This document shows, in pieces, positions 2,795 to 47,374 of a stretch of DNA of 64,000 nucleotides (position 1 is its first letter; every line of letters starts with the position of its first letter). Both the position numbers and the translations under genes were made by a program. Below the pieces are notes generated by a model, which searched no databases, had not been told where the DNA came from, and saw nothing but the letters and a program-made list of their open reading frames with translations. Origin of the DNA: Prochlorococcus sp. AG-347-K16 (GTDB taxonomy: Bacteria > Cyanobacteriota > Cyanobacteriia > PCC-6307 > Cyanobiaceae); assembly GCA_003281405.1 (NCBI GenBank), contig QCCD01000002.1, forward strand, positions 124,001-188,000, written 5' to 3'.

Positions 2795-3994
2795 ATGCAA
2801 AATAGGCAAACAAATCAGGTATTTAATTTTGACAAATTTCCAAATTTTGAAAAAGATATACATCTAAAACAAAGAGCATGGATTGAAGTTAAAGGTAAAG
2901 CAATAGAAACAAACGTTAGACAGTTAAGATCAAAATTAAGTAAAAATTGTCAATTTATGGCAGTCGTTAAAGCTGATGGATATGGACATGATGCGAAATT
3001 AGTATCAGATTATGCGATAAAAGGTGGAGCATCTCAATTAGGGGTTGCCACATTAAATGAAGGCATTAAGCTTCGTTCTTCTGGAGTTGAAAAACCAATT
3101 CTTATCCTCGGAAATCTTTATACGAAAAGGGATTTTATTATATGTTTAAAAAATGATCTTATGCCAACTATTAGTAGTATAAGAGAATGTTTAATTTGCA
3201 ATAACATTGGTAAGCAATTTGGATTGAAATTTCTCTTACATCTTAAAGTTGATACTGGAATGTCAAGATTAGGATTTGAATACAATAAATTTGTTCAGCA
3301 ATTTGAAAAAATAAAATCTTTTGAAAACATTTTAATAGAAGGAATATATAGTCATTTATCTTCTGCAGATGAAGCTAACGCATTAGATCCTAAAAGTATT
3401 ACACAATTACAAAGACTGAAGTTTAATGAATTATTAAAGCAAATTAATCTTAATCGAAATAATGAAATTAAGATTCATTTGGCTAATTCTGCGGGAATGC
3501 TTATTAACAAAGATTTTCATTTTGACATGGTACGTGTTGGTCTTTCTATGTATGGATACAGTCCTTTAGAAAAAATAGATAAAAATTTATCACTTAAACA
3601 AGCTTTATTTTTGAAAGCTAAAGTAGCTTTTATTAGAACTATTGATCCAGGTGTTGGTGTAAGTTATGGAGGTAAATTCGTAAGTCATAGAAAAACTAAT
3701 TTAGCTGTATTAAGTATTGGTTACGCAGATGGAGTACCAAGAAATCTTTCAGGAAAGATAGAGGTTATTCATAATGATAAACTTTATCCCCAAGTTGGAT
3801 CCATTACTATGGATCAAATGATGGTGGACATAACAGGTTCAAGTGAAATTAAAGTTGGTAGTACCATGTTATTACTAGGATCTGATGGAGATAAAACAAT
3901 TTCTCCTCTTGAATGGGCAAGAAAATCTAATACTATTCCGTGGGAAATTCTTTGTTCTTTTAAAAATAGATTACCGAGAGTTCAAGTTGATTAG
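2795..3994 (+). CDS. alr: Alanine racemase
   Basis: PLP-dependent racemase making D-alanine for peptidoglycan. 399 aa. The PLP lysine is in AVVKADGYGHD near residue 55, and the catalytic tyrosine in GVSYGGKF in the C-terminal beta-domain. HLANSAGML and GSITMDQMMVDIT are further family segments. The N-terminus is about 20 residues longer than in many homologues, so a later start is possible. Divergent from the HNH gene; tRNA-Ser follows 61 nt downstream. Confidence 0.95.
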   Translation: MQNRQTNQVFNFDKFPNFEKDIHLKQRAWIEVKGKAIETNVRQLRSKLSKNCQFMAVVKADGYGHDAKLVSDYAIKGGASQLGVATLNEGIKLRSSGVEKPILILGNLYTKRDFIICLKNDLMPTISSIRECLICNNIGKQFGLKFLLHLKVDTGMSRLGFEYNKFVQQFEKIKSFENILIEGIYSHLSSADEANALDPKSITQLQRLKFNELLKQINLNRNNEIKIHLANSAGMLINKDFHFDMVRVGLSMYGYSPLEKIDKNLSLKQALFLKAKVAFIRTIDPGVGVSYGGKFVSHRKTNLAVLSIGYADGVPRNLSGKIEVIHNDKLYPQVGSITMDQMMVDITGSSEIKVGSTMLLLGSDGDKTISPLEWARKSNTIPWEILCSFKNRLPRVQVD

Positions 3995-4055
3995 ACATTT
4001 CGATTAAATAAAAAATTTTGAATGTTTGCAAAAAAATTGATAATGTATAAGAACT

Positions 4056-4144
4056 GGAGAGGTGGCTGAGTGGTTGAAAGCGGCTCCCTGCTAAGGAGTT
4101 ACAGGAGGTAACTTTTGTCGAGGGTTCGAATCCCTCCCTCTCCG
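4056..4144 (+). tRNA. tRNA-Ser (anticodon GCU)
   Basis: Complete class II tRNA with a long variable arm. Acceptor arm GGAGAGG pairs with CCTCTCC; anticodon stem CTCC/GGAG encloses loop CTGCTAA with GCT at 4090-4092; T-arm is GAGGG-TTCGAAT-CCCTC; discriminator is G at 4144. It reads AGC/AGU serine codons. No CCA is encoded. Its 3' end is the attachment site for the integrated elements that follow: truncated copies lie at 9404-9426 and 12060-12071. Confidence 0.97.
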
Positions 4145-4146
4145 TG
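4133..4146 (+). repeat. attL-type site in tRNA-Ser 3' end
   Basis: The 14 nt CCTCCCTCTCCGTG spans the 3' end of tRNA-Ser and 2 nt beyond. It is repeated exactly at 9413-9426; its inner 12 nt (4134-4145) recur at 12060-12071. tRNA 3' ends are the classic target of tyrosine integrases, and such an enzyme is encoded at 6531-7805. Confidence 0.85.
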
Positions 4147-4256
4147 GTTTTTGGATGTCAGGAAGCGTTATACAGACTCAGATTGTAGATATAGTCAGGG
4201 TTTTATCTAATTCACTGAATCAGGGATATTCACACAGTAGCACGAAGTTTCAGTAT

Positions 4257-4307
4257 GTCAGGGGATGAAATGGGGGATGAAATGAAATGGGTCAGGGGAT
4301 GAAATGG
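4257..4307 (+). repeat. Element-1 end repeat cluster (left copy)
   Basis: Iterated GGGGATGAAATG units. Bases 4257-4283 form a 27-nt block identical to 9319-9345 near the other end of element 1, in the same orientation. A further partial copy, GTCAGGGGATGAAATGG, is at 4291-4307. Possible roles are integrase or excision-factor arm binding sites; this is inference from position. Confidence 0.85.
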
Positions 4308-4508
4308 ATATAGCAGAATAATATTAAGTACCACACAGTGGTAATAAAGATGCAACACGAGAACCCCTGCTACGACTACCAACAACATAGGAACGACACA
4401 TACAAACACACACAACGTACATTACAACGCTGTCCTAGGCGATTCTGAGTGGAGTAAATCGCTTATTGTGTTGCTTATGGTGTATAAAGTCCCATAATTT
4501 GTAAATTG

Positions 4509-4573
4509 TGATACCCCACTTCCTGGTACGCTAACACTACGATCTGATGGTGTCATAATACGGTATCATAATA
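4509..4573. promoter_or_regulatory. Candidate resolvase res/operator site
   Basis: Just upstream of the serine resolvase. TGATACC (4509-4515) is the exact reverse complement of GGTATCA (4562-4568). TCATAATA occurs twice, at 4553-4560 and 4566-4573. Serine resolvases commonly bind inverted repeats immediately upstream of their own gene. Binding here is untested. Confidence 0.4.
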
Positions 4574-4593
4574 GTATTGAAACCAACAGCATT

Positions 4594-5169
4594 ATGATTA
4601 CTATTTTTGGATACTGGCGTTGTTCAACTGATGCACAGGATCAGGAACGACAGATTCGTGCTTTGTCTGATGCAGGTTGCGAAAAGATTGTTGGAGATAA
4701 GATTACGGGTACTTCAAATTATGGTGATAGAAAAGCACTATCCAAACTGTTAGATGATATTAAAGAAGGCGATCTACTGATACTGGATGAGTTGAATAGA
4801 TTGGGAAGGACTATGGTTACTATGCTCGTGGAAGTGAATAGGTTGTTGGAGAAAGGTGTAAGGATTAGGACATTAGATGGCAGGTTAGATACGACTACTA
4901 TGCCGAGTGAGATTATCAATCTAATAGTTGGTGTAATGGGGTATGCTGCCGAGATGGAATTGAAGAATATAAAACGACGTACAGCAGAGGGCAGAGCAGT
5001 TGCATTATCTCGTGGTGTGAAGATGGGAAGAAAAAGATCCTACTCACACCACCAATTGGAAGAAATCAGGGTAATGAGAGGATCTCAGCGAGGTTATGGT
5101 TCAATTGCTAAATCTTTGGGTATGAGTAAATCAACTGTCCAAAGATTATGTGTAAGAGCAGGTATCTAA
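4594..5169 (+). CDS. Serine recombinase, resolvase/invertase family
   Basis: A 191-residue small serine recombinase, the standard length for the Tn3 resolvase/Gin invertase family. The catalytic serine is Ser11 in YWRCSTDAQDQERQ. Active-site arginines lie in DELNRLGRTM. The long E-helix region (MELKNIKRRTAEGRA) is followed by MGRKRSYS and a C-terminal helix-turn-helix (GYGSIAKSLGMSKSTVQRL) that binds DNA. The key residues are present, so it is probably active, either resolving multimers or inverting cargo. It lies next to the left end of element 1, and its 3' end overlaps the convergent small gene by 4 nt. Confidence 0.93.
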   Translation: MITIFGYWRCSTDAQDQERQIRALSDAGCEKIVGDKITGTSNYGDRKALSKLLDDIKEGDLLILDELNRLGRTMVTMLVEVNRLLEKGVRIRTLDGRLDTTTMPSEIINLIVGVMGYAAEMELKNIKRRTAEGRAVALSRGVKMGRKRSYSHHQLEEIRVMRGSQRGYGSIAKSLGMSKSTVQRLCVRAGI

Positions 5170-5348
5170 TTCAATGAATTTATTATTTTCTGCTTAAGCA
5201 GGTCATCAATGTAATTATCAATTGAATCTTCAACAAATTTATTTTTGTTTGTTTTTTGTTTATCGGGTAGTTGCTTATTGAGTTTATTGATTGCTTTATT
5301 CATTTTTCCCTCCAACTGACTGTTGGTAATGCTCACTGTAATACTCAT
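5166..5348 (-). CDS. Small hypothetical protein (60 aa)
   Basis: Unrecognised 60-residue, lysine- and asparagine-rich protein, second gene of a two-gene unit; its ATG overlaps the stop of the upstream gene by 4 nt, suggesting translational coupling. The sequence starts with a short beta-like stretch (SITVSIT) followed by two predicted helices. That layout is compatible with a small DNA-binding or antitoxin-like fold, but no motif proves it. Its 3' end overlaps the resolvase 3' end by 4 nt. Confidence 0.5.
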   Translation of the reverse strand: MSITVSITNSQLEGKMNKAINKLNKQLPDKQKTNKNKFVEDSIDNYIDDLLKQKIINSLN

Positions 5349-5542
5349 AGATTTTGTCTTTTGTATTCGTCTCTTAGCAACTTCCTATGCAACTGACTGA
5401 AAGAGAAACCGTGGAATTCCATTAACTTTTCAGTTATTGCCTCCATTTGCTTTGCTTCTCGTTTTGGAATAGAAAGATTCCTTTTCGTGGTTTTTTCCTC
5501 TAAATCAGTTGGTGTAACTGATTTTTCTAGTACTATGCTCAT
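5345..5542 (-). CDS. Small basic protein, possible ribbon-helix-helix
   Basis: A 65-residue protein of unknown function. A good Shine-Dalgarno (AAGGAG, complement of 5549-5554) lies 6 nt before the ATG, better than for most genes in this window, which supports translation. The segment RNLSIPKREAKQ followed by helical MEAITEKLMEFHG and SFSQLHRKLLRDEYKR looks like beta-helix-helix, as in ribbon-helix-helix regulators. This is a guess from pattern only. Overlaps the next gene by 4 nt; the pair may be a regulator with a partner or a toxin-antitoxin-like unit. Confidence 0.55.
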   Translation of the reverse strand: MSIVLEKSVTPTDLEEKTTKRNLSIPKREAKQMEAITEKLMEFHGFSFSQLHRKLLRDEYKRQNL

Positions 5543-5804
5543 TGATTACTCCTTTGTTACTTACCTCCAATTTCCTTCTATATCACTATTCGGATTGTTG
5601 AGGTCTTAGACAGCGTTCCCTGTATGTATTTATTTATGATTTAAATGCCGTACTCTTTCAAACTGTGAAGGGATTTGAGTGATGCGGAGTGTTGATTCAA
5701 AGAAATTCCCAAAAATACTTTAAAGAATCTATAAATAACTAATAAATAAAAAGTAAATAAATCATCCACACTTTTATCTATAAGAGTTCCTCTGCGAATT
5801 TTGA
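5543..5804. other. Intergenic region with AT-rich tract and DnaA-box-like site
   Basis: Divergent promoter space between the small-protein pair and the zinc-ribbon gene. Bases 5728-5762 are an AT-rich run with repeated AATAAATA/GTAAATAA-type units, followed by TCATCCACA (5762-5770), one mismatch from the DnaA box TTATCCACA. It could be a small replication origin or simply promoters. Nothing else is recognised. Confidence 0.3.
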
Positions 5805-6257
5805 TTGAAGTTACCAAATAGAAACATTATGAGATATACCTACAAACGAGATAGAAATTTTGAACAACGATTTTTTGATGAACTGGTTATTAAATTTCAT
5901 GGCATAAAATCTAAAAAACTAATAAATGGTTACCCTGCCTATAAAATTGAGTGCCCATATTGTAAGAAAAGGGGTGCTGTGATGGGAACGTCAAAGAATA
6001 AAGAGACTTTCTATCTGCTTTGCCCACACCATCTTTGTGCATCTGGAGGATCAAAGGTACTGGATAAAGTGATTAAAGATCACGCTAACTCGGATATGTG
6101 GGAGTCATGGCGTGAGGGTCATTGGATTGATAACTATGCGTGGTTTGGCATTAAGAGTCAAACTGAGAGAATAAAAGGCGAGAGTAAAACATTCAAAGAG
6201 AAGCAGCAATTGAAATCTGAAACTGCTCGCATTTACTCCGCCAATTCACGGAACTAG
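5805..6257 (+). CDS. Zinc-ribbon hypothetical protein
   Basis: A 150-residue basic protein with a probable zinc ribbon: CPYC at residues 50-53 and CPHHLC at 73-78, about 19 residues apart. Zinc fingers of this spacing occur at the N-terminus of element-encoded primases, so a primase-like or nucleic-acid-binding role is possible. No primase catalytic domain follows, so it could be a stand-alone accessory protein or a remnant. The start is uncertain: TTG at 5805, or ATG at 5829 with residues MRYTYKRD. The C-terminal third is low-complexity and charged. Confidence 0.6.
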   Translation: MKLPNRNIMRYTYKRDRNFEQRFFDELVIKFHGIKSKKLINGYPAYKIECPYCKKRGAVMGTSKNKETFYLLCPHHLCASGGSKVLDKVIKDHANSDMWESWREGHWIDNYAWFGIKSQTERIKGESKTFKEKQQLKSETARIYSANSRN

Positions 6258-6280
6258 AAGCGGAAAGACTTTTACAACCA

Positions 6281-6305
6281 AATTTTCTGACAGAAATTTT
6301 TTATA
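6281..6305 (+). terminator. Possible weak terminator after zinc-ribbon gene
   Basis: TTTCT-GAC-AGAAA stem-loop, with flanking AAAT/ATTT that can extend it over a bulge, followed by a run of T. It lies 25-45 nt after the stop at 6257. Short and bulged, so only a candidate. Confidence 0.3.
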
Positions 6306-6332
6306 ATCCATTGGTATAACTCGCCCGTTTGG

Positions 6333-6348
6333 AAACCTTTGTAGGTTT
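6333..6348. terminator. Small hairpin between convergent genes
   Basis: AAACCT-TTGT-AGGTTT, a perfect 6-bp stem with a 4-nt loop, 21 nt beyond the end of the 43-residue reverse ORF at 6370. It could end transcription of the integrase unit, although the T-run is poor on either strand. Confidence 0.3.
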
Positions 6349-6369
6349 GGGTCTCTTTGCTTTTTGGAA

Positions 6370-6501
6370 TTAACCAATTAGGTCTAGGAGATTACCCTTC
6401 TCGTCAGTTAATTTATAGCGTCTGCCATCTGCTGCTTTCCGTGTCATTACCCTGCGAGCATCCGCCTCATTAGTTTTTGTCGTATATCTCTGCCATTTCA
6501 T
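6370..6501 (-). CDS. Unlisted 43-residue basic protein after integrase
   Basis: Short frame starting ATG at 6501 and ending TAA at 6370-6372. The product begins MKWQRYTTKTNEADARR and ends GNLLDLIG. It starts 29 nt after the integrase stop, on the same strand, with an AGGA (complement of 6509-6512) 7 nt before the ATG. The composition is protein-like (Arg/Lys-rich first half, then KLTDEKGNLLDLIG), unlike chance AT-rich frames. It may be the last gene of an AlpA-integrase-ORF operon, for instance an excision cofactor. Function unknown. Confidence 0.5.
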   Translation of the reverse strand: MKWQRYTTKTNEADARRVMTRKAADGRRYKLTDEKGNLLDLIG

Positions 6502-6530
6502 AAATTGATCCTGCCAGTAAATATAGTATT

Positions 6531-7805
6531 TCAAACTTTCAATCCATTCTCTGTCAATAATTTACACCAATCATCCATTAGTTTCTTTCTGTCTTTCAAT
6601 CTAAGTGATCTGTCGTATGCTTTATCAACTTTATTGTCTGGCAAATGACCCATTTGTCTTTTAATAACGTCGCTTTCAGCACCCAGTAGATCTATGGCGT
6701 AGGTTCTGGCAGTTCGTCTCCAACCGTGTGCTCTCTGTTTGTCACTGTATCCGAGATTTTTTAGATAGTTATTTGGCGACTCAGGATCTAAGTGGGGATA
6801 ACGTGATTGTCTGATGGGTTGAAAGACATACTTACTCCCATCATTGTATTGACTACATACTTCCAATATTTGTTTCATCTCGTTTGTTAGAGGCACATAG
6901 TGAGGGATATTGTCATTTACATCCTTCCTTCTCTTCAATCCGTGGGTGTTGCCAGGAATTTCAAAACATTCAATACCATCTTTATCTTTAATCCATTCCC
7001 ATTCCAACCTTGCCAATGCCCCAGTGCGTAAGAATGTCATAAGCAGGAACTTTGTTGCTAATACTGTTTGAATGTGAGAATTACATTTATTCAAATTGAT
7101 GTCAGTAAGTAGTTTTGGTACTTCATTCCAGTCAAGTGTCGGATGATGATTCTCTCTTCTTCTTTGTCTCTTAAATTTGGATGCTGGATTTTGCCCTCTC
7201 GTCATCCATCCTTTCTCAATCGCAAAATTAAAAACAGCATTAAGTAATTCTTGGCATCTCTCTGATTGATCTACTCCATTCCCCCTCGCTTGAATTCTTA
7301 TTTTTTCAATAAGCGAAGTAATGATTTCTCTGCCACCATTGTCCCACTCCAATTGTTTGAGGGTGAAATGAGGACTGATGTTGCCTAGAACTCTATTATG
7401 CAGTTGGTTTTTATAGGTTTGATGAGTAAATGGTTTAACATCCAGACCTTCAGATAGAAATTTATCTATTGTTTCTTTGAGAGTATGAGTTTCCTTCTCA
7501 ATCTTTTTAATTAGATGATTTTTAAATTTGGAAACTGGTTGATTATTTTCCAGACTCCATAATTTAATCTTCTGCCACTCTAATTCTGCTGTCTTCAGCG
7601 AGAATTCATTAAACCCAGTACCAAACTTACCAAGTTGGATTTCAGATTGTTTGTACCTGCCTTTGAAATACTTGCCACCACCTCGCTTATCGCCCTCAAT
7701 GCCATTGTATGTTTTCTCAACGACTATGAATAAACCATCTCCACAACCTCGCTTATAGATTTTTGAATCTGGTTTAAGTTGCTGTATTTGTCTTTGTGTG
7801 AGCAT
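6531..7805 (-). CDS. int: Tyrosine site-specific recombinase (integrase)
   Basis: A 424-residue tyrosine recombinase that probably inserts and excises element 1 at the tRNA-Ser 3' end. Catalytic residues are visible: Arg260 (FLRTGA), His360 and Arg363 (HGWRR), His387 (MGHLP) and nucleophile Tyr397 (KAYDRS). The N-terminal 90 residues resemble the arm-binding domain of P4-type integrases, and residues about 105-205 form the core-binding SAM-like region. All catalytic residues are present, so it looks active. Its ATG overlaps the stop of the upstream AlpA-like gene by one base (TAATG), indicating coupling. Confidence 0.94.
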   Translation of the reverse strand: MLTQRQIQQLKPDSKIYKRGCGDGLFIVVEKTYNGIEGDKRGGGKYFKGRYKQSEIQLGKFGTGFNEFSLKTAELEWQKIKLWSLENNQPVSKFKNHLIKKIEKETHTLKETIDKFLSEGLDVKPFTHQTYKNQLHNRVLGNISPHFTLKQLEWDNGGREIITSLIEKIRIQARGNGVDQSERCQELLNAVFNFAIEKGWMTRGQNPASKFKRQRRRENHHPTLDWNEVPKLLTDINLNKCNSHIQTVLATKFLLMTFLRTGALARLEWEWIKDKDGIECFEIPGNTHGLKRRKDVNDNIPHYVPLTNEMKQILEVCSQYNDGSKYVFQPIRQSRYPHLDPESPNNYLKNLGYSDKQRAHGWRRTARTYAIDLLGAESDVIKRQMGHLPDNKVDKAYDRSLRLKDRKKLMDDWCKLLTENGLKV

Positions 7806-8008
7806 TAGTTTTCTCCATCTGGTGCAACAACAGCGAGGTTAGAAATCCATTTATTGATGTCATTAGATTTCCAGACCACACAGTTAGATCCGAGTGATAG
7901 TCGCTTCGGGAAGTTCCCTGCCCTCTCGTATCTGTAGATAGAGGATTTAGATAGAGACGTGATCTCCATCACCTGCGGTAGTCGCAGGAGTTTAGTTTCA
8001 AGTTTCAT
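7805..8008 (-). CDS. AlpA-family DNA-binding protein / excisionase
   Basis: A 67-residue helix-turn-helix protein. LLRLPQVMEITSLSKSSIYRYERAGNFPKRLSLGSNCVVWKSNDINKWI follows the AlpA/MerR-like excisionase pattern (split here for reading: LPQVMEITSLSKSSIYR is the helix-turn-helix and the G-x5-W segment the wing). AlpA-type proteins regulate or direct excision by integrases. The stop overlaps the integrase start by one base, so the two are made together. Probably recombination directionality factor or activator of int. Confidence 0.85.
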   Translation of the reverse strand: MKLETKLLRLPQVMEITSLSKSSIYRYERAGNFPKRLSLGSNCVVWKSNDINKWISNLAVVAPDGEN

Positions 8009-8046
8009 TGTTTTAATAATTAAGTAAGTTGAATATTTTTAGACTT

Positions 8047-8595
8047 TTAGTCTTCTTCTTGATCTACACCATACACAGTGCAAAAAGCATTCCAGTAATC
8101 TCTATACTCTTCTTCCTTGTAAAAAGAATTCATGCCTTCATACAAAGTTCCGAAAACTTCATCCAGTAACCAACCTTTGTACCCTTCAGTTACTTTCAAC
8201 TCTCCTTCACAGTTGGAAAGATTCTCGTAAAGTTGTTCCCACACTGGAAATTCATTGACGATAATGTTATCCATTTTGTGTTCTACCAAATGTTGTAACG
8301 CTTCAATTTCTATCTCAGATAGTTTGACTGTCTCATTTTCAACCTGATTGTTATGACCTTCTATGTCATAAGGCAGTGGGTACCATCCATCAACATTCAA
8401 CTCAAGGAATGACTGTATTCCAGAATTCCATTCAAAGATTTGCTTACAGTCATTGATAAAATCTTCGTGATCTTTTTCTGTGAAGTATCTCTCCTTTTTG
8501 ATCTCGTCATACTTTGGCATTACTTTTTCCTGTATGACAAAGAAACTGTTTGAGTCATAAGGAAGTAAAGTCATTGCTGTTGCTGAATTTGTCAT
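8047..8595 (-). CDS. Acidic hypothetical protein (182 aa)
   Basis: Unrecognised protein with about 39 Asp/Glu among 182 residues and few basic residues. It ends in VDQEED. Aromatic residues (Tyr, Trp, Phe) are frequent, suggesting a folded protein. No membrane segment or signal peptide. It lies 38 nt upstream of the AlpA-like gene on the same strand, and the second acidic gene follows 64 nt further upstream, so they may form one transcription unit with the integrase module. Function unknown; a DNA-mimic or inhibitor role is only a thought from the charge. Confidence 0.7.
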   Translation of the reverse strand: MTNSATAMTLLPYDSNSFFVIQEKVMPKYDEIKKERYFTEKDHEDFINDCKQIFEWNSGIQSFLELNVDGWYPLPYDIEGHNNQVENETVKLSEIEIEALQHLVEHKMDNIIVNEFPVWEQLYENLSNCEGELKVTEGYKGWLLDEVFGTLYEGMNSFYKEEEYRDYWNAFCTVYGVDQEED

Positions 8596-8659
8596 AGTTT
8601 AAAAAGTGGATTGTTGGATTGGGTTTGAATGTAAAATTGTTTATTTTTTAGATGTCGTA

Positions 8660-9016
8660 TTACTGATGAATTTTTTGATACATATCGTCTAATACTTTTT
8701 CGTGTGAAGGATCGTAATCAAAATCAGGGTCATCACAGTACTCTTCATAATGCTCAACAGCATCATCTAATCTCTGTGTAAGGAATCCATAAGTCTCCTC
8801 ATCCAGTACGACCTCATATAATCCATTTTTATTTGGTTCTATAGTTCCGAGGTTGTGAGAAAATTCTTCAAGATAATCTTCTAATTCTGCTGCATCCTCA
8901 TCTCCACCTCGTCTTCTATCTCCTAATTCTTCTATTGTCCAATCAACTGTGTCAAAAATAGTATTAAATTCTTCTTCAGTAAATTGAGCAGTAGGAGTCG
9001 CTGTAGTAGTTGTCAT
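8660..9016 (-). CDS. Highly acidic hypothetical protein (118 aa)
   Basis: Unrecognised protein with about 34 Asp/Glu among 118 residues against only about 7 Lys/Arg. It starts with a Thr/Ala run (MTTTTATPTAQFTEEEF) and has acidic clusters EYCDDPDFDYDP near residue 95. First gene of the leftward unit leading to the integrase. Strongly acidic small proteins on mobile elements are often DNA mimics (anti-restriction, nucleoid antagonists), but this is inference only. Confidence 0.72.
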   Translation of the reverse strand: MTTTTATPTAQFTEEEFNTIFDTVDWTIEELGDRRRGGDEDAAELEDYLEEFSHNLGTIEPNKNGLYEVVLDEETYGFLTQRLDDAVEHYEEYCDDPDFDYDPSHEKVLDDMYQKIHQ

Positions 9017-9403
9017 AATGTAGTAATAGTAATGGAAGTATTGGTTATTTCTTAACTTGGAAGTTAGGCAAAGTCAGGGAGGGAATGTCTGACTGATGAT
9101 AGAACCCTTGTCGGGTTATGTAGTATTCAGTTGTATGATAATAGTATAACTGTTTTATCAATATCTGTCTAGCAAATGTTAAGGTATGGTAACAAAATAA
9201 AGTACTGCTATGACTGGATAGTTGGACTTTTATATCTTTATATTTTATCTTAAAAAATAGTACTATTAAATTAACATTTAGTACCAATAGATTAGTCGTG
9301 CTAATTAACATTTTCATGGTCAGGGGATGAAATGGGGGATGAAATATCCATAATTTCTGGGATAAGAGTGTCATCCCTTCCCATACCTAGTCACTGAGAT
9401 TTA
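9017..9403. other. Non-coding right arm of element 1
   Basis: About 390 nt between the acidic gene and the middle att copy. It must hold the leftward promoter for the acidic/integrase genes. The frame 9045-9374 on the reverse strand crosses the conserved repeat and has no protein-like features. The sequence CTTCCCATAC at 9377-9386 resembles CTTCCAT in the right arm of element 2. Confidence 0.6.
9319..9345 (+). repeat. Element-1 end repeat (right copy)
   Basis: A 27-nt block identical to 4257-4283 near the left end, direct orientation. Core unit GGGGATGAAATG is present twice. Its placement about 60 nt inside the att copy matches an integrase accessory site. Confidence 0.88.
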
Positions 9404-9426
9404 GTCCGATTTCCTCCCTCTCCGTG
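9404..9426 (+). repeat. Middle att copy (tRNA-Ser 3' fragment)
   Basis: Twenty of 23 bases match tRNA-Ser 4124-4146, with the last 14 (9413-9426) identical. It marks the junction between elements 1 and 2. The upstream part of the tRNA is absent, so this is an attachment remnant, not a gene. Confidence 0.88.
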
Positions 9427-9539
9427 TTTTTAGAAGAGTATGGAAGTTCATAGCGTTACTGAAGCTTGTGATACTAATTAGTTTGCAGAAAATACAAGAT
9501 CAGAGACATTCACAGAGTATCACGGAATTTAATGTTTGT

Positions 9540-9573
9540 GGGGTAGGAAAATAAAGTCTAGAGGGTAGGAAAT
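9540..9573 (+). repeat. Element-2 end repeat (left copy)
   Basis: Two units: GGGGTAGGAAA (9540-9550) and TAGAGGGTAGGAAAT (9559-9573). The 12 nt TAGAGGGTAGGA recur at 11966-11977. It occupies the same relative place as the GGGGATGAAATG cluster of element 1 but has a different sequence. Confidence 0.7.
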
Positions 9574-9654
9574 TTTTTGCGAAATCCAAGTCTTTGCAAG
9601 GTATACCTGCATCACGACAAAACCACCCAGCAGACATGGCTATAAAAGGATGAA

Positions 9655-11757
9655 TTAATCATTAAAACCTTCAATTATTTCTTTGGTTGAATAAATTCCT
9701 ATAAATGGTGCTGTAAATTCACTAATAATGCCTGTACTTTTTCCTAAAAAACTATTTTTAACAGATATGAGATCTCCTTCTTTTAGAAAAGGATTCCTCT
9801 TCGAACCTCGTTTTGCTTGAGCAGAATAAGGAATATTTTTCTTTAAAATTGTTCCATCTTTGTTATACCTTATTAAAACAATTTTTCCTGATAAAGGTTT
9901 TATTGGTCCACTCAAATCAATTACATCTGATAATGAAGCTTCTAAAGGTAATTTTACAGTTCCAGGATTTTCGACTCTACCAAAAATATCTACTGTTATA
10001 AATCTTGGAGAAAGACCGCTAAGGATTGATTTAGGGATGATCTCTGGAGAAGCTGATGCGAGCTCTGGGAAAAATATTCTATCTCCATCGAATAATCTAA
10101 TATCGTTAGTAGGATCACTTTCATCTAAAAAAGAAGTAAAGTCAATAATTGCTCTTTTTTTCCCTCCTCCTTTTCCAATGGGAACGTCTCTTATGATTTC
10201 AATCTTTGATAAATCAGTTTTAGAAGTTATTCCTCCTGCTCTATTAATTACATTAGAAATTGTAGTGAAATTTTCAGATGGAGTTTTTATTTGAAAATTT
10301 GATTTATCGTTTGTATTATTTCGTATAGCATTATCAAGATTTTGACTTTGAGAATTATCTTGATAATCAAAAATCAAATCTTTGTTTATTTTTTGAATTG
10401 AATTATTGTTTGATTCGCTCAGAGTAATCATTTTTTTCTCTTCATTTGATATTTTTTGATCACTATCAAAAAAAGTTTTTACATTACCCTGCTTATCAAC
10501 TTCATCTATAATATTTTTAAACGCCAGAGAGGTAAAAGCTGGGAATTTATATACACCTGGTGACCTTACCTCACCACCAACAAGTATTCTAAGCTTTTTA
10601 AATGTTGCTATTTTTATAGTCGTTTTAGCATTGATATTGAATTCAGAGTACTTTTTTTCAATTAATTGGGAGAGTTCACTAGGTGTTAATCCTCTTACAT
10701 AAGTCTCTTTGATTTTGGGAAGAAAAATTTCACCTTCTAGATCAACATTATAGATTCCTGATCCTACAAATTTAAATTGGCTGACGCTGATTTCAACATC
10801 AACAGAAAGACCAAATTCTTTATATTTTTCTTCTAAAAGTTTCTCTAATTCACTAATTTTTAATCCTTTTACATATAAATTTACAGGTGAAAGGTTTGGT
10901 CTCTGAACTAAAATTTCGCCTAGTTTATTAATTTTAAAATCGCCAGAACTAATAAATCTAAGTTTATTGAGACGAATTTCCATATCAGTAAATTTTAAAT
11001 ATTTTTCATACTTTTTCTCTAGTAAATCTTTTACTTGAGTAATAGTTAGATCTCTTATATATACTGAACCTAGCTCAGGTAGATATATTTCTCCGGCTTC
11101 ATCAATGCCTTTTAAAGAATTAAATTCAGGAACATAGATAAATTTGATATCTAGAATATCACCCTGATCTAATTTGTAATTATTTAGGTTACTTAATGGA
11201 GTTAAATATTCAGTAATTAGAGGTTTATTCTTTGTAGACTTTATAAGTAATTTAGGATCTCCTTTTGCAATATTTTTAAAATTTATATTTATAACATCTC
11301 CTGTATCTAATATATAATCACTAAGATCATTTTTAGGATCTAGGTAAGATAACTTTGTTGGATCTCTTTTATTTTGTTTCTCTTCATTTAGCGAATCTAA
11401 CCCTCTCGGGAAATTCTCGAATTCAATATATAAACCATCTCCAGTGTCGATAATATAATCTTCTAGAGATTTTCTAGATTTGATGTAATTTAAGTCGAGT
11501 TTATTTATATTTTTATTATTTAATTGTTTTGTTTCTGAATCAAAATTTAGGTCTTCTAATGCAATATGTGAATCTAAGTTATCTATTGCGAGCTCTTTAT
11601 TACTACTCAAATTTGCATTATCATTACCTGCCTTGACAAGGTCAAATATAAAAACAGATATCAAAACATTAAAGATGAAAAGGAATTTCAAATTACTTTT
11701 ATATGCAAGTAATTTGAATATTTTTCCAGGAATATTGACTTGAACTTTCAAAAACAA
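9655..11757 (-). CDS. Polysaccharide export protein with triplicated SLBB/export domains
   Basis: A 700-residue Wza/OtnA-type protein for export of capsule or other surface polysaccharide, expected in the periplasm or outer membrane. An N-terminal hydrophobic segment (about residues 22-40) acts as a signal or anchor. Three DTGD/DQGD motifs (about 104, 151, 197) mark repeated starts of the Poly_export domain. Three related blocks with GEI and LEKKY-like helices cover about 215-268, 272-330 and 334-386. SLBB-like segments follow (GGEVRSPGVYKF near 394; VINRAGG; FGRVENPGTVKL near 600). A low-complexity Asn/Ser/Asp linker lies at about 425-500. Sole gene of element 2; a phage- or grazer-related surface role is inference. 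Confidence 0.85.
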   Translation of the reverse strand: MFLKVQVNIPGKIFKLLAYKSNLKFLFIFNVLISVFIFDLVKAGNDNANLSSNKELAIDNLDSHIALEDLNFDSETKQLNNKNINKLDLNYIKSRKSLEDYIIDTGDGLYIEFENFPRGLDSLNEEKQNKRDPTKLSYLDPKNDLSDYILDTGDVININFKNIAKGDPKLLIKSTKNKPLITEYLTPLSNLNNYKLDQGDILDIKFIYVPEFNSLKGIDEAGEIYLPELGSVYIRDLTITQVKDLLEKKYEKYLKFTDMEIRLNKLRFISSGDFKINKLGEILVQRPNLSPVNLYVKGLKISELEKLLEEKYKEFGLSVDVEISVSQFKFVGSGIYNVDLEGEIFLPKIKETYVRGLTPSELSQLIEKKYSEFNINAKTTIKIATFKKLRILVGGEVRSPGVYKFPAFTSLAFKNIIDEVDKQGNVKTFFDSDQKISNEEKKMITLSESNNNSIQKINKDLIFDYQDNSQSQNLDNAIRNNTNDKSNFQIKTPSENFTTISNVINRAGGITSKTDLSKIEIIRDVPIGKGGGKKRAIIDFTSFLDESDPTNDIRLFDGDRIFFPELASASPEIIPKSILSGLSPRFITVDIFGRVENPGTVKLPLEASLSDVIDLSGPIKPLSGKIVLIRYNKDGTILKKNIPYSAQAKRGSKRNPFLKEGDLISVKNSFLGKSTGIISEFTAPFIGIYSTKEIIEGFND

Positions 11758-11965
11758 AAATTAACTAGTTCTATTTTACTATTTTACTAGAACTCTAGCT
11801 ATCTAGCTAATTGAGATTTAAAGCTTTACTTCAACTAATCATAAATATAAAGAATATCTAAATTAGAGCAATCGTAAAAAATTAGTATTTTGATTTCTTT
11901 CCTACTTTGCGAATGTTAGTCTACCTAAATCTTTGAAATTAGATGGTTAAATTGAAGTAAAAGCA

Positions 11966-11977
11966 TAGAGGGTAGGA
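11966..11977 (+). repeat. Element-2 end repeat (right copy)
   Basis: TAGAGGGTAGGA, identical to 9559-9570 and in the same orientation. A related TTAGGAAAT follows at 11984-11992. Confidence 0.65.
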
Positions 11978-12013
11978 TGTAAGTTAGGAAATCCTCCTTT
12001 TTTCATTTTTATG

Positions 12014-12043
12014 CTTCCATATAGTTCCATATACTTCCATTTA
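12014..12043 (+). repeat. Three 10-nt tandem repeats beside right att
   Basis: CTTCCATATA, GTTCCATATA and CTTCCATTTA in exact tandem, one helical turn apart. The array ends 16 nt before the right att copy. The related inverted sequence TATGGAAG is at 9439-9446 near the left end of the same element. Helically phased repeats suggest protein binding, perhaps by the integrase. Confidence 0.7.
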
Positions 12044-12059
12044 GGTACACTCTATTGAA

Positions 12060-12071
12060 CTCCCTCTCCGT
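12060..12071 (+). repeat. Right att copy (decayed tRNA-Ser 3' fragment)
   Basis: CTCCCTCTCCGT matches tRNA-Ser 4134-4145 exactly. Over the 23-nt window used for the middle copy only 13 bases match, so this is the most decayed and probably oldest junction. The chromosomal HAD gene ends 34 nt further on. Confidence 0.72.
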
Positions 12072-12104: not shown

Positions 12105-12893
12105 TTAAAACAAGTTAAGATTAATATCTTTAAGGTCATAAATAGAATTTAAAATCAAGTCAGCGCCTGCATCTCTAAGATTTGTTTCGTAAGAATTACG
12201 TTCTTTTAATCGAGAATTTAAATGTAAATGAGGGGGAGCTATTCCGATACTTATGAATTTCTGAGATGGTATTTCCTTTCTGGCGTTTATAACTGTATTT
12301 ATATCTGCAATAGTATCTCCTACATATGCAATGGGAATATTTGATTTGCCAAGTTTATCTCCAATAAGCTTTTTTGATAAGTTAATAAAACCTTTAGGAT
12401 CTGGCTTGTCAGGGGCATCTCCCATAGATACTAATGGTGGTGATTTTAGTCCAAGTCTTTTTTCTAAGACAAATTTTGCAGAAGCAGACTCTGCACCACT
12501 AACAAAACCCCAGATTATTCCATTACCTTTAATTAAATCAAAAAACTTTTTATCAACTAATAACTCCTCATTTGTTATGTAACCAGACCAGTATTTACTA
12601 TCTTTATTTGGATCTCCACCAAAGTAAAACTCTTCAAAACATTTTACTATTTCCTCTCTCGGAGGAATTTTAAGGTTTAAGTTCTCTTTTTTTATAAATC
12701 TTTTTATAAGTTCTAAACTTAAATCCCAATCATTATTCCAAATCCCTTCATTTTTTGCATTATCAATATCGATATAACTTGGTTCCCATCCGGAAAATTT
12801 GTAAACTGTTTTTTTTAAAGAAAGTCTATAACTATTTTCTACGCTGCGGATTACCCCATCAATATCAAACAAAATTAAACCAATATTTTTCAA
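12105..12893 (-). CDS. HAD-superfamily hydrolase
   Basis: A 262-residue HAD phosphatase-like protein. Motif I is LFDIDGVI with Asp10 and Asp12; motif IV is YVGDTIADI near residue 190; FVSGAES near 130 is a plausible motif II and PDKPDPKGF the lysine-containing motif III. It resembles the subfamily conserved in cyanobacteria and plants with no firm substrate (TIGR01548-type). Substrate unknown. It is probably the ancestral neighbour of tRNA-Ser before the elements inserted. Confidence 0.85.
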   Translation of the reverse strand: MKNIGLILFDIDGVIRSVENSYRLSLKKTVYKFSGWEPSYIDIDNAKNEGIWNNDWDLSLELIKRFIKKENLNLKIPPREEIVKCFEEFYFGGDPNKDSKYWSGYITNEELLVDKKFFDLIKGNGIIWGFVSGAESASAKFVLEKRLGLKSPPLVSMGDAPDKPDPKGFINLSKKLIGDKLGKSNIPIAYVGDTIADINTVINARKEIPSQKFISIGIAPPHLHLNSRLKERNSYETNLRDAGADLILNSIYDLKDINLNLF

Positions 12894-44597: not shown

Positions 44598-45692
44598 TTA
44601 GATATCAGAAATCATGTAAATCCAGCATACTTTAAGAAGTTTTAATCCATCTATCCATCTCGATATATTTGGTGTTCCAGATTTTCTGGCGTAATATCTA
44701 ACAGGATAATTTAGTATTTTAACGTTATTTTTTGCAGCTTCGAATATTATTGTAAAGTCTCCAAATGGGTCAGACTTGGAATCCCAACTTCCATTTTGTT
44801 TCATAAGTTTAAAAAATTTTCTTGAAAAAACTTTTGTTCCACAAAGTGAATCTGATACAGGTTTATTTATGAGAATTGATAGAAATATTGCGAAAAGTCT
44901 ATTTCCAATATAATTTGCCCATCTCATGGCATCTTTTTCCATTGGAAAAGTTGTACGGGCACAATTAATAAGGATATTTTTATTTTTGGTTGATTCCAGA
45001 ATTGCTGCAATACTGTCGTCAATATCTACAGTAAAATCACTATCAATTATGGCGAGGGTCTCACCTGAAGAAGTATTAAGTCCCTCTACGACAGCATTTT
45101 TCTTCCCTATGTAAGTTTGTTTTAAAAGAGATATCTTGAAGAAATTTGAGAAATTTTCCTTTAAATCTCTCAAAATTTCATATGTATTATCATTGCTGTT
45201 ACCTTCAACAAAAATAATTTCTAATTTATTGGGTATTTTTTTGAATTTATTTAAAGCATTAATTAAAAGTTCTTTATTACCAGCTTCATTTCTTGCAGGA
45301 ATTACTATTGATATTAAATGTTCTGAAATATTTTCACTATATTTATAAAAAACTATTTCTAGTTCGTAAGAAAGCTGTTTTATGATTGGTATTTTCCGAA
45401 AAATATTTTTTAAAGATTGTGGAATTAGCTTCGTGGGAAGAGGAGTAAGTTTTTTTGCTTTCCACCTTATTGATCTGTAATTATAAATTTCCGCTAGAGA
45501 TTCAATATCGCATAAAGTTATTCTTGCTTTGCTGGTAGTTTCTTTAAAAATTCTTGAATCTAATTTTAGCCATCTTGTAATTGGCTCCCAAGTATTACCA
45601 CGGACTTTAATGGAAATAAATTCGTTATTATCTTTAAATAATTGATGAAGTTCATTATTAGTTAAATTCCAACTATTAACAGATTTCATCAT
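44598..45692 (-). CDS. Glycosyltransferase family 2 (364 aa)
   Basis: A GT-A glycosyltransferase with a 125-residue N-terminal extension of unknown role. The catalytic domain has SIVIPARNEAGNK, FVEGNSNDNTYEIL and AIIDSDFTVDIDD with the DxD; SLCGTKVFSRKFF follows. No clear C-terminal membrane helices, unlike the transferase at 19789. It lies 38 nt downstream of the PMT-like gene, same strand, so the two probably act together on a lipid-linked sugar. Confidence 0.84.
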   Translation of the reverse strand: MMKSVNSWNLTNNELHQLFKDNNEFISIKVRGNTWEPITRWLKLDSRIFKETTSKARITLCDIESLAEIYNYRSIRWKAKKLTPLPTKLIPQSLKNIFRKIPIIKQLSYELEIVFYKYSENISEHLISIVIPARNEAGNKELLINALNKFKKIPNKLEIIFVEGNSNDNTYEILRDLKENFSNFFKISLLKQTYIGKKNAVVEGLNTSSGETLAIIDSDFTVDIDDSIAAILESTKNKNILINCARTTFPMEKDAMRWANYIGNRLFAIFLSILINKPVSDSLCGTKVFSRKFFKLMKQNGSWDSKSDPFGDFTIIFEAAKNNVKILNYPVRYYARKSGTPNISRWIDGLKLLKVCWIYMISDI

Positions 45693-45730
45693 TAAAAACT
45701 ACAACTGACATCTTATTATAGATTGACTAT

Positions 45731-47284
45731 TTAATTTTTTAAAATTAATTTCCAAGGTTTTAAAGTATCATTTTCATAAATCACTTCGAAAGAAAAATCG
45801 TTGTTATTTATCTTTTGAAGGTCAGTTGTCCATACTAATTCTGATTTTTTTAATTGATCAATACTTTCTAATCCTTCACCTAGTTTAGGAGTTAATAAAG
45901 CTATTCTTATGATTTTTGATTGGGATTGACTATTTTTAATACCTGATATATCAACTTTTATCGGTTGATTTTTTACTATATCAAGAGATGATACGTACTC
46001 CATTTTTTCTCTTAGTTCTCTAGATCTATCTGTGAATAATCCTGATTGCAAAAGAAATGATGTTAAAAAGTAAGGCCCAATTATTAAAATTATTAATAAT
46101 TCTTTGAATGAGTTTTTTTGTTTTAAAAAAGACCAAGATATTCCGAATAATAATAATCCAAGAATTAGAAATGTATTTTCTCTAGAGGTAAAGTTAATAG
46201 TATTTTTAAAGAAAAAATAATATATGAAAGTTAGAGAAAATATAAATAATGGAATTATTTTTGAAGTTACAAATAAAAAAATTTGGTTATATGTTTTGGA
46301 GTTGAACAAATATTTCACTCCTACATAAGCATTTAATGAAAAAATAGATGAGATTTGTAGAGGATAATAGGGCGTTTTCGTGGAGAAAATACTCAGAGTT
46401 ATTATCAATATTAAGGGAAAATAAGTAAGTATATATTTGTTATCTTTACTATGGGATATGTTTTGTATTGTGCCAATAATTGCGAAAAAACTCCATGGTA
46501 GAAATGTTGTAGGAATATTCCAAAGATAATAATAGAAAGGATTCGTAAAATTGTTTTTGCTAGATAGAACGTTAAATTTTTCGAATAAGTAAAAAATAAT
46601 ATTTTTCTCTAAATAAGGGTTGATTGAAAATGTCCAAAACAAATAAGGAATAAATCCAATTAATAGTCCAACCCAAAAAAATTTGCTAAATAAAAGATTC
46701 TTTTTTATAAAAAAATATGGTAGAAGTGATATTAATGGTACAAATACTAAAAAAGTTTTCATCATAAAAGCTAAACCAATCCAAATTCCAAAAAGAAGAA
46801 TATAGAATTTGTTATTTTTACTTTTTATTTTGACTGAAGAAAATATTCCAATAGTTACTAAACATGAATAAACAATATCTTGAGTGGCTAAGTGCGAGTA
46901 GTCAAACCATAGATATGTAGTAGAGAGTATTAGTGGAGATATAATTGCATATTTTTTACTAAATAATTCTTCATGTAATTTATAAGTTATGAATAGCATC
47001 AATATTGCAGCGATTGTTGTTGGTAGATATGCAGAAAAAATATTTCTTCCAAAGAATTCTTGTGACTTTGCTATCAAAAACTGTAATCCTATTGTTCTAT
47101 CTAATACATATCCATCCCACCAAAGAGGAATTGTCCAGTTGCCCTTGTCTAATATCCATCTAGCTTGAAGTGCATAAAATCCTTCATCAAAAGCAATAAA
47201 ACTTCTTTTGCCAAAATAAAATATGAGAGGAATAAAAATAATTAGCTTAAAAAGATATTTAAATTTTGAAATTTTATTAACCAT
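45731..47284 (-). CDS. PMT/ArnT-like membrane glycosyltransferase
   Basis: A 517-residue integral membrane GT-C enzyme with about 11-12 hydrophobic helices. FDEGFYALQARWILDKGNW near residue 32 has the conserved Asp-Glu of the PMT/ArnT first loop. The C-terminal 90 residues form a soluble domain. It would transfer a sugar from polyprenyl phosphate to lipid or protein. It begins 18 nt after the tRNA-Thr 3' end and precedes the GT2 gene; together they form a two-gene surface-glycan unit. Confidence 0.83.
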   Translation of the reverse strand: MVNKISKFKYLFKLIIFIPLIFYFGKRSFIAFDEGFYALQARWILDKGNWTIPLWWDGYVLDRTIGLQFLIAKSQEFFGRNIFSAYLPTTIAAILMLFITYKLHEELFSKKYAIISPLILSTTYLWFDYSHLATQDIVYSCLVTIGIFSSVKIKSKNNKFYILLFGIWIGLAFMMKTFLVFVPLISLLPYFFIKKNLLFSKFFWVGLLIGFIPYLFWTFSINPYLEKNIIFYLFEKFNVLSSKNNFTNPFYYYLWNIPTTFLPWSFFAIIGTIQNISHSKDNKYILTYFPLILIITLSIFSTKTPYYPLQISSIFSLNAYVGVKYLFNSKTYNQIFLFVTSKIIPLFIFSLTFIYYFFFKNTINFTSRENTFLILGLLLFGISWSFLKQKNSFKELLIILIIGPYFLTSFLLQSGLFTDRSRELREKMEYVSSLDIVKNQPIKVDISGIKNSQSQSKIIRIALLTPKLGEGLESIDQLKKSELVWTTDLQKINNNDFSFEVIYENDTLKPWKLILKN

Positions 47285-47302
47285 TTTAAATTGCTATGAA
47301 AG

Positions 47303-47374
47303 TGCCGATAATTGGAATTGAACCAATGACCTACTGTTTACGAGACAGTTGCTCTACCACTGAGCTACACCGGC
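47303..47374 (-). tRNA. tRNA-Thr (anticodon CGU)
   Basis: Complete 72-nt tRNA on the reverse strand. Acceptor GCCGGTG pairs with TATCGGC (two G-U pairs); anticodon stem ACTGT/ACAGT around CTCGTAA with CGT; T-arm ATTGG-TTCAATT-CCAAT; discriminator A. No encoded CCA. Reads the ACG threonine codon. Its 3' end faces the PMT-like gene. Confidence 0.96.

What the first reader, a model, noticed from the sequence alone, without database searches (positions are those of the whole stretch)
4056..12071. Two integrative elements stacked in tandem at tRNA-Ser(GCU)
The tRNA 3' end is followed by two further copies: 20 of 23 bases at 9404-9426 and 12 exact bases (13 of 23) at 12060-12071. The decay gradient fits repeated insertion, with the newest element next to the intact tRNA. 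Element 1 carries an apparently intact tyrosine integrase; element 2 has none. Between them they separate alr/tRNA-Ser from the HAD gene, which were probably adjacent. Tycheposons of Prochlorococcus use tRNA sites in this way; the stacking order is inference.
Basis: partly seen in the sequence, partly recalled or inferred. Interest (0 to 1): 0.85.

Follow-up and report, generated by a model that had tools for sequence, protein, structure and literature searches.

The report
Stacked mobile elements behind tRNA-Ser
Two separate mobile DNA elements, one with its own integrase and one carrying only a surface-polysaccharide gene, sit one behind the other at a serine tRNA gene of the ocean cyanobacterium Prochlorococcus, at a hotspot where a small element without an integrase has recently moved between species.

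Summary
The last 12 bases of tRNA-Ser(GCU), CTCCCTCTCCGT, recur at 9414-9425 and 12060-12071. Of 135 genus genomes with tRNA and HAD gene on one contig, 71 join them directly (28-56 bp apart, usually 37; 36 bp lie between core and HAD gene here) and 64 carry inserts. Relatives of element 2 stand alone in three other genomes, so these are two elements.

The "decay gradient" is wrong: bases 5' of the core belong to each element's own attachment site. Insertion order stays inferred; element 2 has, however, lost one 12-bp arm repeat.

New here: a shared geometry. Tandem 12-bp repeats lie about 126/138 bp inside the tRNA end and 103/91 bp before the far end. Sequences differ between families, but the two ends of an element tend to match (33 of 60 perfectly; 0 of 100,000 permutations as good overall). 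They look like integrase arm sites. Related integrases were found in 6 of 64 occupied loci; the rest are mostly 0.2-4 kb. One integrase-less 1.4-kb element is 97-98% identical between species whose flanks are 88-93%, so it moved. I read element 2 as an integrase-less member of such a family; mobilisation in trans is inferred.

The parts
4055..4145 (+). tRNA-Ser(GCU), attachment gene
   Evidence: ARAGORN
4134..4145 (+). 12-bp core CTCCCTCTCCGT, tRNA-side junction
4146..9425 (.). Element 1 (5280 bp), integrase-bearing
4257..4307 (+). Element 1 left arm-type repeats: tandem GTCAGGGGATGAAATGGGGGATGAAAT and a third copy from 4291
4594..5169 (+). Small serine recombinase of invertase/resolvase type (PF00239; phrog_125)
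   Evidence: homologues in 7 of 7 integrase-bearing elements clustered
5805..6257 (+). 150-aa protein of unknown function with cysteine pairs (read from the translation)
   Evidence: no family above its cut-off; no match
6531..7805 (-). Tyrosine integrase, apparently intact
7805..8008 (-). AlpA-type excisionase/regulator (PF05930)
8047..9016 (-). Two acidic proteins of unknown function (8047-8595, 8660-9016)
9319..9345 (+). Element 1 right arm-type repeats, 27 of 27 bases identical to 4257-4283
9403..9413 (+). Element 1's own attP bases 5' of the core (AGTCCGATTTC), the same in L061 and L067
9414..9425 (+). 12-bp core shared by elements 1 and 2
9426..12071 (.). Element 2 (2646 bp), no integrase found
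9541..9571 (+). Element 2 left arm repeats GGGTAGGAA (9541-9549, 9563-9571); a further 12-bp copy present in 6 of 6 aligned relatives is missing
9655..11757 (-). Polysaccharide export (Wza-type, SLBB) cargo gene, 700 aa
11970..11990 (+). Element 2 right arm repeats; second copy AGTTAGGAA, against GGGTAGGAA in 5 of 6 aligned relatives and AGGTAGGAA in L072
12060..12071 (+). 12-bp core, HAD-side junction; what follows is the empty-site sequence
12105..12893 (-).

Best explanation
4146-12071 is a tandem of two independent site-specific elements at the 3' end of tRNA-Ser(GCU). Element 1 (5.3 kb) looks complete: a tyrosine integrase with an AlpA-type excisionase and a small serine recombinase, and arm-type repeats (GGGGATGAAATG) at both ends. 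Element 2 (2.6 kb) is an integrase-less cargo element with a Wza-type export gene and its own, different arm repeats (GGGTAGGAA). Mechanism: the integrase exchanges strands in the 12-bp core (shown only as the junction), bridged by integrase bound to arm repeats about 126/138 bp inside one end and 103/91 bp inside the other (geometry shown, binding inferred). Each insertion rebuilds the tRNA 3' end, so further elements can be added (stacks delimited by cores are seen in 9 of 64 loci, plus a four-core stack in G098). Integrase-less elements keep core and arms and can be moved by an integrase of another element that reads their arm type (movement is shown for one family, the helper is inferred). 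The window's element 2 is probably now hard to mobilise, because one left arm is deleted and one right arm is mutated (inference).
For: 71 of 135 sites are empty (28-56 bp between tRNA and HAD gene, 37 in 36 of them; 36 bp after 12071 in the window). Element 2 relatives are sole occupants in L064, L065 and L072. L061, a sole occupant of 1.8 kb without integrase, shares element 1's left end (83% over 171 bp) and right end (79% over 107 bp) and its attP bases, so ends and integrase part company. Elements with element 2's end signals carry different cargo: DUF3804 alone (L058), Wza type alone (L064, L065, window), both (L072), Wzz plus both (L084, whose left arms are lost). In G098 a segment between two cores (one mismatch each to the window's core) joins integrase, AlpA, a serine recombinase and a Wza-type gene to a right end 79% identical to element 2's over 101 bp. 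Left and right arm repeats match within elements: mean best match 9.07 of 10 against a maximum of 8.25 in 100,000 permutations, n = 60, 33 perfect. The GGGTAGGAA tandem gives 9 hits in 8 of 266 genomes, 8 of the 9 at tRNA-Ser(GCU) or its insert and 1 a simple repeat elsewhere; the reversed pattern gives 0. Integrase-less element: 98.3% against 90.2% upstream and 87.8% downstream (L053/L055); 97.0% against 89.1% and 87.9% (L052/L071). Same core with a 12-bp-period tandem at the same distance in Synechococcus CS-1331 (no tRNA in the stretch held).
Against: No binding, excision or transfer was measured. In 18 of 60 elements the best left-right match is 8 of 10 or less, no better than mixed pairs; among them are G098's integrase-bearing segment (GGGGACAAT-type arms left, GGGTAGGA right) and L067, which has unlike ends. 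No integrase with GGGTAGGAA arms on both ends was found. Sister integrases (G098, G054) lie beside unlike arms, so an arm-to-integrase code is not demonstrated. The two arm types in the window agree at 9 of 11 positions (my count), so cross-recognition is possible. 23 of the 64 occupied loci have no recognisable core (2 mismatches or fewer) on the HAD side and may not be elements of this kind (64 minus the 40 counted there, with L072 put back because its extra 27-bp segment is a parsing artefact). Three viral-contig pattern scans (exact matches only) gave 0 hits and one protein scan no relative, so the vehicle between cells is unknown.
Confidence: 0.8

Rival explanations
1. The whole 4146-12071 interval is one composite element with an internal core copy, acquired in a single event.
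For: Composite tandems can move as a unit (passages of PMC5704250). The G098 segment joins an integrase module and a Wza-type gene between two cores.
Against: Each part has its own arm repeats at both its ends, of different sequence. Relatives of element 2 stand alone (L064, L065, L072); elements with a related integrase stand alone (L085, L086), and L061 with element 1's ends stands alone.
Confidence: 0.12
2. Integrase-less elements are dead remnants; they are spread by homologous recombination (transformation, transduction), not by integrase acting in trans.
For: Element 2 has damaged arms. Some distal elements are about as similar as their flanking HAD gene, consistent with vertical descent (L040.1/L063.2 90.8% against 89.8%; L038.1/L087.2 86.8% against 87.4%). 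Conserved ends could serve as recombination homology. No helper with matching arms on both ends was found for element 2.
Against: L053/L055, L053/L054 and L052/L071: identity is 97-98% in the element and 88-93% on both sides; the first and last 300 bp of L053/L055 and L053/L054 are 99-100% identical. Matching arm repeats are kept in many elements in which no integrase was found.
Confidence: 0.3
3. Element 2 is the younger one, inserted at element 1's far core instead of at the tRNA.
For: The far core is an exact 12-bp copy, so it could serve as a target. Across stacks there is no general trend to poorer arms in the distal member (proximal/distal 10/9, 9/10, 10/9, 10/10, 10/9 and 10/10 for L060, L063, L087, L090, L089 and the window).
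Against: Element 2's arms are damaged while element 1's are identical over 27 of 27 bases. Three other stacks can be read as newest next to the tRNA: distal members about as similar as flanks in L063 and L087, proximal member a recent arrival in L071. These three were picked out after seeing the data.
Confidence: 0.2

Closest known systems
Cis-mobilizable elements (CIMEs) and tandem accretion at tRNA genes (passages of PMC5704250)
   Same: Integrase-less element that keeps both attachment sites, in tandem with an integrase-bearing one, at the 3' end of a tRNA gene.
   Different: No conjugation family among the 10 window proteins scanned; many families with matched arm repeats; an integrase-less element shown to have moved alone.
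Tandem ssrA genomic islands of Dehalococcoides (passages of PMC3146451)
   Same: Tandem islands bounded by direct repeats of an RNA gene's 3' end; 16 with and 15 without an integration module; element-specific motif next to the repeat; a small PinR-like serine recombinase.
   Different: Their putative integrase is a large serine recombinase; here it is a tyrosine integrase with arm-type repeats.
Tycheposons of Prochlorococcus (original paper not held; described through passages of PMC10872708)
   Same: Prochlorococcus, tRNA site, tyrosine recombinase, cargo genes.
   Different: Quoted length 4-200 kb; element 2 and most inserts here are shorter and no related recombinase was found in them. Whether tRNA-Ser(GCU) is one of the seven tRNA sites could not be checked.
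Picocyanobacterial integrase elements at tRNA-Phe/tRNA-Cys (passages of preprint PMC10187409)
   Same: Tyrosine-type integrase with a small serine recombinase often nearby, in variable islands beside a tRNA.
   Different: That integrase is described there as a distinct subgroup with an unusual domain structure, at other tRNAs; I made no sequence comparison.

Membership tests
Tyrosine-integrase genomic island in a tRNA gene | Direct repeat of the tRNA 3' end at both borders, empty sites in relatives | tested here: met
Tyrosine-integrase genomic island in a tRNA gene | Integrase with catalytic residues | tested here: met
   element 1 only (residue set recalled)
CIME (element 2) | Keeps both attachment cores but no integrase | tested here: met
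CIME (element 2) | Mobilised together with its neighbour | not testable with these tools
   needs junction PCR or a transfer assay
Tycheposon | Tyrosine recombinase beside a tRNA | tested here: met
   met for element 1; not met for element 2
Tycheposon | Length 4-200 kb (as quoted in PMC10872708) | tested here: inconclusive
   element 1 5.3 kb met, element 2 2.6 kb not met
Tycheposon | One of the seven tRNA sites and the module set of the original description | not tested
   paper not held
Phage satellite | Packaging, capsid or phage-hijacking genes | tested here: not met
   7 window proteins against PHROGs: the functions named are integrase, excisionase, DNA invertase and DNA-binding protein, others unknown or no match; no integrase relative in viral contigs. 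Hijacking genes of unknown kind would be missed.

The most novel reading that the evidence does not exclude
The tRNA-Ser(GCU) site of Prochlorococcus is a cassette dock: small integrase-less elements, many with one to three cell-surface genes, are inserted, stacked and exchanged between species by integrases supplied in trans, and the 12-bp arm repeats act as an address that decides which integrase can move which cassette. Recombination between the two arm arrays deletes the cargo and leaves scars of about 220 bp, much as solo LTRs form.
Probability: 0.4. Interest if true: 0.78.

Novelty: new variant of a known kind. Interest (0 to 1): 0.62.

Why it matters
If helper integrases read the arm repeats of integrase-less elements, single surface genes could spread through Prochlorococcus without being tied to large islands, at one fixed place, which would bear on how its envelope varies. 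The arm repeats give a concrete, testable prediction of which integrase moves which element, and the solo scars would record lost cargo at sites that look nearly empty.

Tried and rejected
Decay gradient: rejected, because the bases 5' of the core are element-borne. Graded damage of distal members across stacks: no general trend; best left-right matches, proximal/distal, are L060 10/9, L063 9/10, L087 10/9, L089 10/9, L090 10/10, window 10/10, and L071 10/7 if the dropped L071.1 is represented by its near-duplicate L052.1; the three G098 segments give 10, 8, 10. Helper for element 2 in the genus: the strict tandem pattern in 266 genomes gave 9 hits, none of them leading to an integrase-bearing element; G098 was found only through its integrase and has unlike ends. 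Viral origin: 0 hits in three exact-pattern scans; one protein scan matched 18 stretches, none a relative. Invertible segment around the serine recombinase, which is inverted relative to L090: no convincing flanking inverted repeat. Repeat score with an unfiltered null: 34 of 63 elements scored 5 or more, against 87 of 623 mixed pairs, but that null mixes members of one family and part of the score needs no right-hand match to be exact, so I rely on the permutation test. In that test six near-duplicates (L053.1, L054.1, L055.1, L071.1, L086.1, L091.1) and elements under 470 bp were left out and three G098 segments added; related families remain, so its p-value is optimistic.

Limits: searches matched 162 and 160 of 200 genomes, but only 150 places each were printed; 135 genomes had both on one contig among these, and G098, G041, G060, G111 and others fell outside for that reason. 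Many genomes are incomplete. The integrase count (6 of 64; 7 of 65 with L091) rests on one integrase family model. Pfam scans of 30 selected ORFs of the relatives' elements showed no other integrase, but not all ORFs were scanned.
Full report
What is there. The window lies in a genome of a genus group that contains named Prochlorococcus genomes (records share contig lengths with handles, for example G054 with AG-347-I21 and G098 with AH-287-B22). tRNA-Ser(GCU) is at 4055-4145. Its last 12 bases, CTCCCTCTCCGT, occur three times in 64 kb, all in this interval. Element 1 (4146-9425) holds a small serine recombinase, a tyrosine integrase, an AlpA-type excisionase and several unknown proteins; element 2 (9426-12071) holds one 700-aa polysaccharide export gene.

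Empty sites. I searched 200 genomes of the genus for the HAD gene and for the tRNA (matches in 162 and 160). Among the 150 places printed for each, 135 genomes had both on one contig: 71 empty (28-56 bp between tRNA and HAD gene, 37 bp in 36 of them) and 64 occupied (174 to 10,720 bp), the window included. In the window 36 bp lie between the last core and the HAD match. The 14 empty sites that I fetched run from the tRNA end into sequence like that after 12071, more diverged in L104, L106 and L107. The proposed refuting result, conservation of the interval as ordinary chromosome in all relatives, is therefore excluded.

Two elements. BLAST of the window's elements against the other occupied loci shows element 2 relatives as the only insert in L064, L065 and L072, and a larger one in L084. 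A related integrase occurs in 7 of 65 occupied loci (6 of the 64, plus L091), and all seven of those elements also hold a serine recombinase. L061, alone at its site, 1.8 kb and without integrase, shares both ends of element 1 (83% over 171 bp, 79% over 107 bp).

No decay gradient. In integration the bases 5' of the core at the far junction come from the element (established for this class of island; recalled). AGTCCGATTTC at 9403-9413 is identical in L061 and L067, and other inserts have other bases there. The 20-of-23 against 13-of-23 contrast therefore reflects two attP sequences, not ages.

Arm repeats. Reading the tRNA-side ends of the inserts showed tandem repeats of about 12-bp period at nearly constant distance. 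In many elements they sit at about +126/+138, often with a third copy further in, and again at about -103/-91. Sequences differ by family: GGGGATGAAATG (element 1), GGGTAGGAA (element 2), TGTTGTTGGGA, GGTGTGGCGA, GGTGGGTAAA and others. Within an element left and right tend to agree: over 60 elements the mean best 10-base match is 9.07, against 7.76 for mixed pairs and at most 8.25 in 100,000 permutations; 33 of 60 match perfectly (5% of mixed pairs do), while 18 of 60 score 8 or less. Related families remain in this set, so I treat the result as strong but not exact. In the window, 27 of 27 bases are identical between 4257-4283 and 9319-9345. Of 12 loci with integrases of other branches, 8 show a tandem of 11-bp period, L123 one of 12 bp only, and L121, L132 and L133 none; this scan had no chance control. 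Synechococcus CS-1331 has the same core and a 12-bp-period tandem at the same distance; CS-1330 has the core but no such tandem. Neither stretch held a tRNA.

Element 2's family. The GGGTAGGAA tandem (up to one mismatch) occurs 9 times in 8 of 266 genomes, 8 times at tRNA-Ser(GCU) or its insert and once as a simple repeat elsewhere; the reversed pattern occurs 0 times. Elements with these ends carry different cargo combinations. In G098, a stack with four cores, the segment 4606-9316 (reverse complement of L122) combines integrase, AlpA, serine recombinase and a Wza-type gene with an element-2-type right end but a GGGGACAAT-type left end. I read it as a hybrid which shows that an element-2-type right end once sat, or still sits, beside an integrase. 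The window's element 2 lacks one 12-bp left arm that six of six aligned relatives keep, and its second right arm differs from theirs.

Movement without an integrase. L052-L055 and L071.1 are a 1.4-kb element with one ORF of at least 90 aa; that of L054 matches a polysaccharide lyase family. L053 and L055 are 98.3% identical in the element but 90.2% upstream (1.5 kb) and 87.8% downstream; L053/L054 98.1% against 92.8% and 89.2%; L052/L071 97.0% against 89.1% and 87.9%. L054/L055 is less clear (96.7% against 89.0% and 95.4%), and other pairs do not show it (L052/L055: element 88.9%, flanks 93.5% and 94.5%; L053/L071 about equal). The element moved by itself at least twice, or was replaced between its ends (inference).

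Scars. Some inserts of about 0.2 kb are a left end joined to a right end at the arm repeats. L034.1 matches L090.2 at 98.0% over its first 149 bp and 98.1% over its last 103 bp, overlapping in the arm tandem; L033.1 and L031.1 match both ends of L090.1 (92/87% and 81/86%), L036.2 those of L078 and L082 (89/88%). L032.1, L036.1 and L030.1 are weaker: their right-hand matches are short or to other elements. L042.1 matches both ends of L088 but has no arms, and L028.1 and L029.1 do not fit. Deletion between the two arm arrays explains the clear cases (inference).

Cargo. I scanned 30 of the larger ORFs. Those from loci without the integrase include carbamoyltransferase, SxtJ family, sulfotransferases, polysaccharide lyase, Wzz, YadA-anchor, PAP2, AlgX-like, hexapeptide transferase, methyltransferase and DUF domains, and GDSL matches below the cut-off; several had no match, and some of the loci (L045, L056, L066, L080, L083, L089) have no recognisable HAD-side core. 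This is a chosen set, so the tilt to envelope functions is an impression, not a test.

Position in the literature. Tandem accretion with integrase-less members is known (passages), as is a small serine recombinase near picocyanobacterial integrases (passages). Of the papers I opened I read passages only; the original tycheposon paper is not held. The listings of my searches showed me no description of matched arm repeats in integrase-less elements at tRNA-Ser(GCU), but most subscription papers are outside that library, so I do not claim that none exists.

Noticed in passing
L034, L033, L031, L036 (inserts or segments of about 0.2 kb): Short inserts that look like a left end fused to a right end at the arm repeats, as if cargo was lost by recombination between arms; clear in L034.1, L033.1, L031.1 and L036.2.
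   Followed up: partly
L122 reverse complement, about 3377-10485: Four core copies (one mismatch to the window's core) behind tRNA-Ser(GCU) in G098, with a second, broken integrase fragment further on.
   Followed up: partly
window 4594-5169: The serine recombinase of element 1 is inverted relative to its homologue in L090 (84% identity); no convincing flanking inverted repeats found.
   Followed up: partly
window 9655-11757: The export protein is 700 aa against 575 aa in L064, L072 and L084; repeated partial alignments to L065 suggest internal repeats.
   Followed up: no
window 44598-47374: tRNA-Thr(CGU) on the minus strand is followed by AT-rich genes that look like glycosyltransferase/membrane genes (by reading, not searched); no repeat of the tRNA end beyond a 12-of-14 match at 46470 inside a gene.
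   Followed up: partly
L124-L131: Eight of 12 loci with integrases of other branches show tandem repeats of 11-bp period, against 12 bp at tRNA-Ser(GCU); no chance control was run.
   Followed up: no
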